From Kiloniellales bacterium (GTDB taxonomy: Bacteria > Pseudomonadota > Alphaproteobacteria > Kiloniellales > JAKSBE01): DNA of 36,475 nucleotides. The notes under the pieces are model-generated. The model did no database searches. It saw only the letters and a program-made list of their open reading frames with translations, and was not told the origin of the DNA. Both the position numbers and the translations under genes were made by a program. The stretch is from positions 1-36,475 of the forward strand of contig JANQGU010000371.1 of the NCBI GenBank assembly GCA_028282935.1, given 5' to 3'. The stretch's first letter is position 1, and the number at the start of each line of letters is the position of its first letter. This document shows positions 11,832-14,780 of the stretch, one piece after another.

Positions 11832-11875
11832 GCTGCGCCTGCCGATTTATTTCGCAGGTGCAGCATTTTTCTCTT
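11832..11875 (+). terminator. Intrinsic terminator of speDE
   Basis: Eleven-base stem GCTGCGCCTGC (11832-11842) with GCAGGTGCAGC (11854-11864), containing one G-U pair and an 11-nt AT-rich loop, followed by ATTTTTCTCTT. This isolates speDE from the RNA region downstream. The -35 element of the next promoter begins in its tail. Confidence 0.88.
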
Positions 11876-11901
11876 GATTCTGAGTCCAGCCGCTTTATAA
11901 C
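11874..11901 (+). promoter_or_regulatory. Sigma70-like promoter of the structured RNA
   Basis: TTGATT (11874-11879), a 16-bp spacer and TATAAC (11896-11901). It is the best housekeeping-type promoter I see in the window. Predicted transcription start is near 11907. No protein-coding gene follows on this strand for about 7 kb (phaC at 18871); the stretch that follows is the hairpin-rich RNA. Confidence 0.7.
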
Positions 11902-11906
11902 CCTGC

Positions 11907-12740
11907 GTCCCGGGCCGCTTGGGGTCCGGACGCAAGGACAGCCCGGGGTGACCCGGGTAAAGGCGTGAAGCCTACATAGCGCCGCCCGCAAGGGCCCGCC
12001 CAAGCAAGCGCCGATGACCCCGCGAGGGGGCCTCATCCGTCAAATGGGGCGAAGTCGGACAGCATGTCTGCGGTCCCGGAAGGGATAGGTCCTGGCCGAC
12101 GGTGGGGGCCGAAAGGGCGGGTGGAACCGCCGCCGCAAGCCAAGGCATCGTCCGCTGATCGTCAAGGCGTGGTGCCGCCGGTACGAGGGTTGTTGCCTCA
12201 GTGCTGCGGCGCAGGTGACCGGGGAGAGATCCTCGGGCAGCCCGTGGGACGCCCCTAACAAGGGACCCGCAGACGGTGAGTTCTATTCCTGGCCCAAAAG
12301 GTCGGGAGGAACCGCTGGGGCTCGTCGTCGTAGGTTACGTAAGCAGCTCAAAGCGAGCAGCGGGCTCAAGACCCGAAGGGAAGGTGCGATTCCTTCGCTT
12401 GCCACCCTTCCAGGGTGGAAACGCAAAAGCCCCCAGCGGTGCGGGCACGGAAAGATGCCTAATCCCGGCCATCTTCGGATGAAGCCGGGGGCCAGGAAGC
12501 CGCAAGCCGAATGGCCTTGCTGTAGGACCGGGCGAACTGGGTCGGCCAACCCAAACCGTTCGGAAAGCAGCGAGACGGCTCGCACGACGGGTGAGACGCC
12601 GCACCCCAAAAAAGGCGGCATTGGGCTGATACCCGGGGAAACCCGGGTGGATGAAGGGCTAACCGGAGGCGCCACCTTCGGGTACGGTCCAGAAGGCAGC
12701 CCGCGGAGGCCCGTAGTCTCAGGGTTTCCCGACTTCTTTT
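11907..12740 (+). ncRNA. Large structured non-coding RNA, unassigned
   Basis: About 830 nt with no plausible protein. Plus-strand hairpins include CCCGGG-GUGA-CCCGGG (11942-11957), GCCC-GCAA-GGGC (11984-11995) and a GAUGA/CCCC stem with a GCGA loop (12013-12037). Others are UCCC-GGAA-GGGA (12074-12085), a 7-bp stem with GAGA loop (12219-12236), CCACCC/GGGUGG (12402-12418) and CCCGGC-CAUC-UUCG-GAUG-AA-GCCGGG (12464-12489). Near the end are GCGAG/CUCGC (12570-12583), ACCCGGG-GAAA-CCCGGGU (12631-12648) and ACC-UUCG-GGU (12674-12683). GNRA and UUCG loops are stable only on the plus strand, which agrees with the promoter. Conserved motifs of RNase P, tmRNA, SRP RNA and group II domain V are absent by eye. 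Function is unknown. Confidence 0.72.
12716..12740 (+). terminator. Possible terminator of the structured RNA
   Basis: GTC/GAC and GGG/CCC pair (12716-12733) with an internal TCA bulge and TTT loop, followed by TTCTTTT (12734-12740). The stem is weak, but it sits exactly between the RNA and the convergent metallopeptidase gene. Confidence 0.45.
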
Positions 12741-12758
12741 CCCGACGTCCGCGGCGGC

Positions 12759-14780
12759 TCAGTCGAAGCGCTTGACCAGGGGGCTGTCGGCGGCGGGCCA
12801 GACGCCCTTGTCGACCGCCTTGCTGCCCTCGAAGACGACGTAGCCGTAGCGCCGGTAATGCGGCAGCGGCCGCAGCAGCAGGGCAAGGCTTTCCGCGTCC
12901 TTGGCCGAGACGATCAGGGCGGTCACCCCGTCGCCGCGGCGCCGGGTCCAGGCGCGGGCGCTGCCCCGGCCATCGAGGACCTTGGGCATGGGCGACACCT
13001 CGTGCTCCGCGAGGGCCTCGGGCAGCTCGCTCTCCAGGCCGACGATCAGCAGGGGGCCGGTCGCGGGCGCCGCCGGCTCGACCCCGCTAGGGGTCGCCGC
13101 GACGCCGCGGACCAGCCGGCCGGCCAGGTCCTCGGCCGCCTGGCGAGCCACCGCGTCCGCGCCGGTGGCCAGGACCACGCGGGCCTCGGGGTTCAAGGTG
13201 ACGTCGCGCAGGATCGGCGTCGCCTCGCCGGGCGCCAGGCGGCGGAAGAGATCGTAGTCGGGATCGATGTGCAGCGCCTTGGGGCGCGCGTCCAGGCGCT
13301 CGCTGACCTTGGCCTTCGCGCCCTTCAGCTCGACCCGCAGGGTCCGGCTCCCGGCCTCGGTCTCGATCCGGACCGGCACCGAGAGGCGGAAGGGGGAGCC
13401 CTTCTGCGACAGGGTGAAGCTCAGCCGCGGGCCGCCGTCCTCCTCGGTCACCACGACCTCGCCGAGCTGCAGCTCCGGCGCCCCGGGGCGGATCAGCCAC
13501 TGCTCGAACAACCAGGTCAGGTCGCGCCCGGCGGCGGCCTCGAAGGCGGCCTGCAGCTCCACCCATCCGGCGCGCCGGTACTTCTGCGCCTGCCAGAAGC
13601 CCCGGATGCCGGCGGCGAAGACCTCCGGGGTCAGCTCCTGCTCCAGCATGTGGAAGAAGAAGGCGGTCTTGTTGTAGCCGATGACCTGCTGGGCGTCGTG
13701 GGTCTTGGAGACGAAGCTGGTGACGGGTTGGTCCTGCCCGGCCGGCAGGGCGGCGTAGTCGCGCAGCCAGCCCAGGCGCATCTCGCGCGCCGCCTCCGGC
13801 CCGCTCTCGGCGGTCAGGGCGTAGTCGGCCATGAAGGTCGTCAGGCCCTCGGCCCAGTTGCCGGCGGCGTAGTCGATCTCGACCGCGTTGCCCCACCAGT
13901 TGTGGGCGATCTCGTGTGCCAGCGAGCGCCCTTGCATGAAGGGCAGGTGCAGGATCTTGTCGGAAACGTAGGTCAGGCCCGGAAAGCCCAGGCCGACCGG
14001 CAGCGGCCCGGCGACGATGTGGAAGGCGTCGTAGGGGTAGGGGCCGATGCGCTCCTCGAAGAGGTCCAGGTAACGCGCCGTGCTGTCCAGGTAGCGGGGC
14101 GCCAGGGTCTCGGCGGCGGCGGGAAAGTAGGTCCGCAGCAGGGTCCCGCCGTGGCGCCGTTCCGCGACCTGGAAGCGGCCGGCGAAGACCGCGGGCGCGC
14201 TCACGCCCGGCTGGCTGGCCACGACCACGCTGTGGCGGCCCTTCTCGCTCTTCTCCTCGATCAGGCGGCCGGTCGCGATCGCCCGGAAGGGCTCCGGCGT
14301 GGAGATCGACAGGCGGTAGCTGCTGCGCGCCTCCTCGGTCTCGGGCATCCAGCCCAGGCGCTCGGGCAGATAGGCGCCGCGCGGGTCCAGGAAGGCGCTG
14401 CCGCTGTCGTCGATCAGAGGGCCCCGGTAGCGCACCACGACCTCGCTGGACTCCTTGCGCGGCAGGCGGACGACCAGCGGCCGCTGGTCCGCGTCGAAGC
14501 GCTCCGCCTCGCCGTCCACCAGCAGCGCCTCGATTTTCAGCGAGGGATAGAGGTAGAGGGCCAGCTCGCGGCGGCCGGTCACGGTGATGCGGTCGCTGCC
14601 CTCCAGGAGGCCCTTTGCCGGATCGAGATCGATCTGGACGTCGTGCGCGACGCTCGGGACCGGGGCCTCGGCCAGGGCCGGCGGGGCCCCGGTCGACAGG
14701 GCCCAGCTCGACAGGGCCCAGGTGGAGAGGGCCCAGGCCGGCAGAACCAGGGCGAGGACGAAGGTCAGGCGCGCGGTCAT
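12759..14780 (-). CDS. Secreted M1-family (gluzincin) metallopeptidase
   Basis: 673 residues with a signal peptide. The zinc site HEIAH (289-293) with the third ligand Glu311 in NWAEG marks an aminopeptidase-N-like fold, preceded by the usual N-terminal beta domain. Two things are odd. The GxMEN substrate motif of true M1 aminopeptidases is replaced by GLGFPGLTYVS. The signal peptide contains three tandem WALS units. The C-terminal part (about 540-673) shows no clear family. It probably acts in the periplasm as a peptidase of altered specificity. ATG 14780 overlaps the stop of the ChaN/PDZ gene, so the two are coupled. Confidence 0.88.
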   Translation of the reverse strand: MTARLTFVLALVLPAWALSTWALSSWALSTGAPPALAEAPVPSVAHDVQIDLDPAKGLLEGSDRITVTGRRELALYLYPSLKIEALLVDGEAERFDADQRPLVVRLPRKESSEVVVRYRGPLIDDSGSAFLDPRGAYLPERLGWMPETEEARSSYRLSISTPEPFRAIATGRLIEEKSEKGRHSVVVASQPGVSAPAVFAGRFQVAERRHGGTLLRTYFPAAAETLAPRYLDSTARYLDLFEERIGPYPYDAFHIVAGPLPVGLGFPGLTYVSDKILHLPFMQGRSLAHEIAHNWWGNAVEIDYAAGNWAEGLTTFMADYALTAESGPEAAREMRLGWLRDYAALPAGQDQPVTSFVSKTHDAQQVIGYNKTAFFFHMLEQELTPEVFAAGIRGFWQAQKYRRAGWVELQAAFEAAAGRDLTWLFEQWLIRPGAPELQLGEVVVTEEDGGPRLSFTLSQKGSPFRLSVPVRIETEAGSRTLRVELKGAKAKVSERLDARPKALHIDPDYDLFRRLAPGEATPILRDVTLNPEARVVLATGADAVARQAAEDLAGRLVRGVAATPSGVEPAAPATGPLLIVGLESELPEALAEHEVSPMPKVLDGRGSARAWTRRRGDGVTALIVSAKDAESLALLLRPLPHYRRYGYVVFEGSKAVDKGVWPAADSPLVKRFD

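What the first reader, a model, noticed from the sequence alone, without database searches (positions are those of the whole stretch)
11874..12740. Large structured RNA of about 830 nt with its own promoter, unassigned to any family I know
Seen directly: an intrinsic terminator closes speDE, a TTGATT-16-TATAAC promoter begins in its tail, and then some 830 nt hold no plausible gene but at least fifteen local hairpins. Six different GNRA loops (GUGA, GCAA, GCGA, GGAA, GAGA, GAAA) and two UUCG loops cap plus-strand stems, matching promoter direction. GGGCC near 11912 can pair with GGCCC near 12708, hinting at a closing helix. RNase P CR-I/CR-V, tmRNA tag frame, SRP loop and group II domain V motifs are not found by eye. 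Size and ornateness resemble OLE/GOLLD/ROOL-class RNAs, but those live in other lineages.
Basis: partly seen in the sequence, partly recalled or inferred. Interest (0 to 1): 0.88.

Follow-up and report, generated by a model that had tools for sequence, protein, structure and literature searches.

The report
Chromosomal GOLLD RNA with tRNA-like linker
The 830-base RNA is a full-length GOLLD RNA, a phage-borne kind known to self-assemble into hollow RNA cages, but here it stands alone on a bacterial chromosome outside any visible prophage, apparently under evolutionary constraint, with a worn-down tRNA built into its middle.

Summary
In detail: a gene-free stretch between spermidine synthase (speE) and an M1 peptidase gene encodes a large structured + strand RNA. 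The claim that it belongs to no known family does not hold. At sensitive settings window 12271-12725 matches Rfam GOLLD (RF02032) end to end (124 bits, E=4e-34). This is below the curated cut-off of 150, so a default scan misses it. Of 92 model pairs present, 81 are standard, 49 of them changed on both sides. The 5' half (11903-12270) shares a covarying domain with IMG/VR phage RNAs whose 3' halves pass the GOLLD cut-off; the nearest lies among phage head and tail genes. The linker holds a tRNA-like cloverleaf (12338-12404) where related GOLLDs carry tRNAs.

New here: an alphaproteobacterial GOLLD outside any visible prophage. One sister species has it at the same site, another has a clean empty site, and it diverges less than third codon positions of speE. 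Side result: tRNAs inside phage GOLLDs mostly have acceptor stems cut to about 4-5 pairs (all seven pairs in 3/37, against 587/675 ordinary phage tRNAs), so they look like fixed tRNA-shaped domains. Expression, nanocage assembly and any decoy function are inferred, not shown.

The parts
11832..11870 (+). Terminator-like hairpin followed by TTTTT, upstream of the promoter (could end speDE read-through and insulate the RNA gene)
   Evidence: Sequence; the near-identical stretch between this genome and G002 starts about here; not called by the mechanical scan
11874..11901 (+). Promoter-like TTGATT-16-TATAAC
   Evidence: Sequence; both hexamers unchanged in sister species G002; TTGATC and TTGACA stand in the comparable place in G061 and phage L049
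11903..12270 (+). 5' (cap) domain of GOLLD
   Evidence: Shared with IMG/VR GOLLDs L043, L044, L046, L049 and MAG L056; covariation
11917..12007 (+). Most conserved 5' block: closing helix GCUUGG/CCAAGC, GNRA hairpin GCCCGGG-GUGA-CCCGGGU (11941-11958), GGNG...CNCC helix (from 11962), CCC-GCAA-GGG hairpin; motif AAAGGNGUGAAGCCUAC (11959-11975)
12271..12725 (+). 3' (ring) domain: end-to-end match to Rfam RF02032 GOLLD
   Evidence: 124.3 bits, E=4e-34, model 1-416/416; 81/92 pairs standard, 49 changed on both sides
12311..12320 (+). 5' strand of a 10-bp helix that closes the linker (ACCGCUGGGG)
   Evidence: same register in 46 of 48 candidate GOLLDs with different sequences
12431..12440 (+). 3' strand of the helix that closes the linker (CCCCAGCGGU)
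12338..12404 (+). tRNA-like cloverleaf in the linker (anticodon loop CUCAAGA; no GG in D-loop; T-loop UGCGAUU)
   Evidence: RF00005 25.5 bits, below cut-off 29, 27.2 bits in G002; same place as ARAGORN tRNAs in L043, L044, L056
12450..12463 (+). GOLLD signature GAAAG-UG-CUAAU
   Evidence: alignment; the pattern also finds phage GOLLDs
12706..12727 (+). Terminal hairpin with conserved GUAGUCUCA loop
11798..12755 (.). Stretch absent from the empty site of same-genus genome G001 (about 956 bp), where the speE and M1 peptidase stop codons are 13 bp apart

Best explanation
This is a full-length GOLLD RNA gene, probably acquired from a phage as an independent transcription unit (terminator-like hairpin, promoter-like sequence, RNA) and kept at one intergenic chromosomal site. 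Shown by sequence comparison: 5' cap domain, 3' ring domain, linker closed by a conserved helix, and a tRNA-like cloverleaf inside the linker. Inferred: the RNA is transcribed, folds as GOLLD env-38 does, and assembles into a hollow homo-oligomer with the tRNA-like linkers facing the inside. Inferred with low confidence: the cage presents or sequesters a tRNA-shaped decoy or ligand (for a tRNA-directed nuclease, processing enzyme or ribosome), first for the phage and now for the host. The confidence given is for GOLLD identity together with the anatomy and phage ancestry; I put cage assembly at about 0.75 and the decoy role at about 0.15.
For: RF02032 match end to end, E=4e-34; 81/92 model pairs standard with 49 double-sided changes at 44% identity to the consensus. 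Same 5' domain in phage RNAs L046 and L049, whose 3' domains score 180 bits, above the cut-off, with strong covariation (98% of cells paired, 22 double changes vs 6.6 shuffled). Linker helix in fixed register in 46/48 candidate GOLLDs and 10 bp in the window. tRNA-like element where relatives carry tRNAs. Nearest relative L049 lies between a radical SAM gene and a major head protein gene of a phage. No phage structural or integration genes among the window proteins scanned. Empty site in G001. Slower divergence than speE third codon positions. The published GOLLD structure has 5' cap, 3' ring, internal linker sometimes holding tRNA, 14-mer cage (PMC12286853).
Against: Score is below Rfam's curated cut-off (124 vs 150). 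No transcript evidence. The sister copy in G002 carries a 268-bp dispersed repeat inside a 3'-domain hairpin, and G001 lacks the gene, so it is dispensable. The tRNA-like element lacks elbow residues. High identity between two genomes could partly reflect transfer. No data on cage assembly of this RNA or on any partner.
Confidence: 0.9

Rival explanations
1. Decaying GOLLD relic: a once-mobile phage gene now drifting without function in the chromosome.
For: tRNA-like element has lost D-loop GG and the UUC of the T-loop; G002 copy interrupted by a dispersed repeat; absent in G001; shortened copy in a Sneathiellales MAG; below the Rfam cut-off.
Against: Window vs G002: 94.1% (5' domain), 93.4% and 99.1% (3' domain) identity against 83.9% at speE third codon positions (p=3e-5, 9e-4, 1e-10). 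Promoter hexamers unchanged while the spacer before them has drifted. All four differences in the tRNA-like element lie in loops.
Confidence: 0.25
2. A novel ornate RNA family unrelated to GOLLD.
For: Default Rfam scan finds nothing; nucleotide identity to the GOLLD consensus is only 44%.
Against: End-to-end GOLLD match at E=4e-34, compensatory pairs, shared linker helix, and shared 5' domain with RNAs above the GOLLD cut-off.
Confidence: 0.02
3. The element lies in a prophage whose genes are outside this contig or degraded.
For: GOLLD is usually phage- or prophage-borne (PMC12286853); the L049 copy is.
Against: Flanking genes are ordinary chromosomal ones; speE and the M1 peptidase gene flank the site in all three same-genus genomes, and in G001 they touch with nothing between.
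Confidence: 0.04
4. The low divergence from G002 reflects recent horizontal exchange rather than selection.
For: By speE and M1 identity the window is nearer to G001, which lacks the element, than to G002, which has it.
Against: Element identity is uneven (94, 93, 99%) and the flanking spacers have diverged with indels at the same site, as expected for shared old ancestry with loss in G001.
Confidence: 0.3

Closest known systems
GOLLD RNA (Rfam RF02032; Weinberg et al. 2009; cryo-EM 14-mer, Kretsch et al. 2025, PMC12286853)
   Same: Size of about 830 nt, separate 5' and 3' domains, conserved 3' domain end to end, linker in the same place, tRNA in the linker of some members.
   Different: Alphaproteobacterial chromosome, no prophage and no tRNA array seen; GC-rich; scores below the Rfam cut-off; embedded tRNA reduced to a cloverleaf without elbow residues.
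Phage GOLLD L049 (IMGVR_UViG_3300030397_000318)
   Same: About 60% identity over 807 nt, both domains, promoter-like sequence in the comparable place.
   Different: Lies between a radical SAM gene and the major head protein gene of a phage; linker shorter, no tRNA fitted.
Mycobacterial GOLLD with pseudo-tRNA (PMC6582537)
   Same: Bacterial genome copy with a pseudo-tRNA inside; reported as expressed, twofold higher in stationary phase.
   Different: Lies within a 32-tRNA array taken to be horizontally acquired.
ROOL and OLE RNAs
   Same: Large ornate homo-oligomeric RNAs; ROOL also forms a cage (PMC12286853).
   Different: No Rfam match to either in the window.

Membership tests
GOLLD RNA | Conserved 3' domain (RF02032) from end to end | tested here: met
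   Model 1-416/416, 124.3 bits, E=4e-34
GOLLD RNA | Score at or above Rfam's curated cut-off (150 bits) | tested here: not met
   124.3 bits. A curation threshold, not a biological feature: L043 (124), L044 (102) and L056 (106), which share both domains, fall below it too, while same-subtype L046 and L049 pass (180)
GOLLD RNA | Consensus helices kept by compensatory change | tested here: met
   3' domain 81/92 standard, 49 double changes (alignment is fitted to the model); 5' domain 98% of cells paired, 22 double-change cells vs 6.6 shuffled
GOLLD RNA | 5' domain of a type found in accepted GOLLDs | tested here: met
   Shared with L046 and L049, whose 3' domains pass the cut-off
GOLLD RNA | Variable linker, sometimes with tRNA, in the conserved position | tested here: met
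   tRNA-like 12338-12404 between GUAGGUU and AAACGCAAAAG; 10-bp linker helix
GOLLD RNA | Phage or prophage location, often near tRNA genes | tested here: not met
   No tRNA genes in the window; no phage structural or integration genes among proteins scanned. A usual association, not a defining feature of the RNA
GOLLD RNA | Assembly into a 14-mer nanocage | not testable with these tools
   Needs in vitro transcript with mass photometry or cryo-EM
tRNA gene (12338-12404) | Score at or above the tRNA cut-off, elbow residues, ARAGORN call | tested here: not met
   25.5 bits vs 29; D-loop without GG; T-loop UGCGAUU; no ARAGORN call
ROOL / OLE | Rfam match | tested here: not met

The most novel reading that the evidence does not exclude
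GOLLD RNAs are cages that carry tRNA-shaped decoys: the tRNAs in their linkers mostly have shortened acceptor stems that could not be charged in the normal way, and their anticodons (mostly Asn and Lys in the phages surveyed) bait tRNA-directed defence nucleases; a bacterium has captured one such cage and keeps it as a chromosomal gene.
Probability: 0.12. Interest if true: 0.9.

Novelty: new member of a known kind. Interest (0 to 1): 0.55.

Why it matters
GOLLD RNAs form some of the largest known RNA-only assemblies, and their function is unknown. A lone chromosomal copy that appears constrained, with a clean empty site in a sister species, gives a defined gene to delete and compare without a phage around it. 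The shortened acceptor stems of GOLLD-embedded tRNAs argue that most of these are fixed tRNA-shaped domains of the cage rather than tRNA genes, which narrows what the cage might hold or bind.

Tried and rejected
Default Rfam scan: no match, only because the score is below the curated cut-off. Coding reading (12215-12775): no domain. ARAGORN tRNA in window or sister: none. Closing helix GGGCC/GGCCC: rejected. Relatives among 50,697 INPHARED phages by distant blastn: none. RF02032 over 385 genomes of the class found only the window, but that search scored only 3 candidates per genome and missed the known G061 copy, so it is not evidence of absence. Two of the four genome hits of the 5' motif (Lachnospiraceae L053, Alistipes L055) have no GOLLD match and are taken as chance. 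Weinberg 2009 and Morgado 2020 are not held, so I could not check which hosts they list. A wrong file look-up gave empty stretches and was redone; a script error was redone.

Full report
What is there. The stretch between speE (ends 11797) and an M1 peptidase gene on the other strand (ends 12759) holds no credible gene. Its + strand folds more stably than shuffled sequence (z=-2.65). A terminator-like hairpin (11832-11870) and a TTGATT-16-TATAAC promoter-like pair (11874-11901) precede it. The consensus scan calls neither, but both hexamers are unchanged in a sister species while the spacer before them has drifted with indels.

Family. A default Rfam scan finds nothing. With permissive settings 12271-12725 matches RF02032 GOLLD over the whole model, 124.3 bits, E=4e-34, against a curated cut-off of 150. 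Reading the printed alignment, 92 of 98 model pairs are present, 81 are standard, and 49 of those differ from the consensus on both sides, though only 171/387 positions are identical; sliding the partners by 1-3 columns leaves about a quarter to under a half standard (this alignment is fitted to the model, so the count leans its way).

5' half. The Rfam model covers the 3' part. A motif from the 5' half, AAAGGNGTGAAGCCTAC, brought in IMG/VR contigs. Six of them align with the window element, four of them distinct. L046 and L049 have 3' domains above the GOLLD cut-off (180.8 and 180.5 bits); L043 and L044 score 124 and 102. Three helices of the shared 5' block keep 98.1% of cells paired, with 22 double-sided changes against 6.6 in shuffles, and fall to 37-51% paired when slid. 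The published structure has this layout: 5' residues forming a cap, 3' residues forming a ring, and a disordered linker inside (PMC12286853). I had no sequence of the solved molecule, so equivalence of the two 5' domains is not tested.

Linker. Just before GUAGGUU (9 bases) and just after GCAAA (2-3 bases), 46 of 48 candidate GOLLDs can form a 7-13-bp helix with differing sequences; the window forms 10 Watson-Crick pairs, 12311-12320 with 12431-12440 (mean 9.3 vs 6.5 with partners shuffled). Rfam leaves most of these columns unpaired; the helix may correspond to an element of the published structure whose numbering I could not check.

tRNA-like element. Inside the linker 12338-12404 matches the tRNA model at 25.5 bits, below its cut-off of 29; G002 gives 27.2. 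It has all four arms and a 7-nt anticodon loop with U33, but a 5-nt D-loop without GG and a T-loop UGCGAUU. The four differences from G002 all lie in the D-loop or anticodon loop and change the anticodon from CAA to UAU. Relatives L043, L044 and MAG L056 carry ARAGORN-callable tRNAs in the same place; a mycobacterial GOLLD also holds a pseudo-tRNA (PMC6582537).

Embedded tRNAs in phage GOLLDs. In 37 distinct linkers with a fitted tRNA, acceptor pairs 4-7 are formed in 36-37 of 37, pairs 1-3 in only 17-23 of 37. All seven pairs form in 3/37, against 587/675 ordinary phage tRNAs in the same loci (Fisher p=6e-25). Asn and Lys anticodons make up 24/37 against 61/675. The simplest reading is that most are tRNA-shaped domains of the RNA rather than separable tRNAs. 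That some GOLLD linkers hold tRNAs is known (PMC12286853); I did not find the acceptor shortening described in the papers I could read.

Location and history. Two same-genus genomes were compared. G002 has the element at the same site, 93-99% identical, with a 268-bp inverted-repeat insert inside a 3'-domain hairpin; related copies of the insert occur elsewhere in the genus. G001 has speE and the M1 gene with only 13 bp between the stop codons, a clean absence of about 956 bp. By speE and M1 identity the window is nearer to G001 than to G002, so either the element was lost in G001 or it was exchanged. Element identity (94.1, 93.4, 99.1%) exceeds that of speE third codon positions (83.9%; p=3e-5 to 1e-10), consistent with constraint. 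The scanned proteins of the window show no phage structural or integration genes. The nearest relative, L049, sits between a radical SAM gene and a major head protein gene, with head-tail adaptor and tail genes on the same contig, which points to a phage source. The 5' motif occurs in four contigs of a collection of 84,980 species from which the window's own genome may be left out; two have GOLLD matches: a shortened copy in a Sneathiellales MAG and one in an Acidimicrobiia MAG.

Mechanism. Likely transcribed alone, folding into cap and ring domains and self-assembling with the tRNA-like linkers inside; only the sequence anatomy is shown here. What the cage is for remains open. GOLLD is described as accumulating in lytic infection yet dispensable for one prophage (PMC7567579) and as binding ribosomes in pull-downs (PMC12286853). 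A tRNA-shaped bait for tRNA-directed enzymes fits the embedded tRNAs, and phages are known to answer tRNA-Lys-cutting defence with altered tRNAs (PMC11455837), but I rate it low.

Verdict. Real, known in kind, unusual in place: a new member of the GOLLD family on an alphaproteobacterial chromosome, with a useful side result on GOLLD-embedded tRNAs.

Noticed in passing
IMG/VR loci L043-L204 (GOLLD linkers between GTAGGTT and AAAANGCAAA): tRNAs embedded in phage GOLLD linkers mostly have acceptor stems of about 4-5 pairs (all seven paired in 3/37 vs 587/675 ordinary phage tRNAs) and mostly Asn/Lys anticodons (24/37 vs 61/675).
   Followed up: partly
L002:2109-2376 (genome G002): A 268-bp inverted-repeat element sits inside a GOLLD hairpin; related copies elsewhere in the genus (L058, L060, L059) suggest a MITE-like dispersed repeat.
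   Followed up: partly
L003:1158-1626 (genome G061, Sneathiellales MAG): A shortened GOLLD: first half of the 5' domain joined to the last part of the 3' domain, lacking the linker; next to different chromosomal genes.
   Followed up: partly
L049:5940-6713: GOLLD in a phage structural cluster between a radical SAM gene and the major head protein gene, with no tRNA gene on the 11-kb stretch.
   Followed up: partly
L043:8943-9015 and L044:2302-2376: Embedded tRNAs with anticodon AUG (A34), unlike ordinary tRNA-His.
   Followed up: no
L056:3418-4259: Acidimicrobiia MAG contig with the same GOLLD subtype and an embedded tRNA with anticodon UAG but a short variable loop, unlike ordinary tRNA-Leu.
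   Followed up: no
window 12283-12675 (-) and 12215-12775 (+): ORFs across the RNA gene that an automatic annotation could call as hypothetical proteins; no evidence that they are genes.
   Followed up: partly
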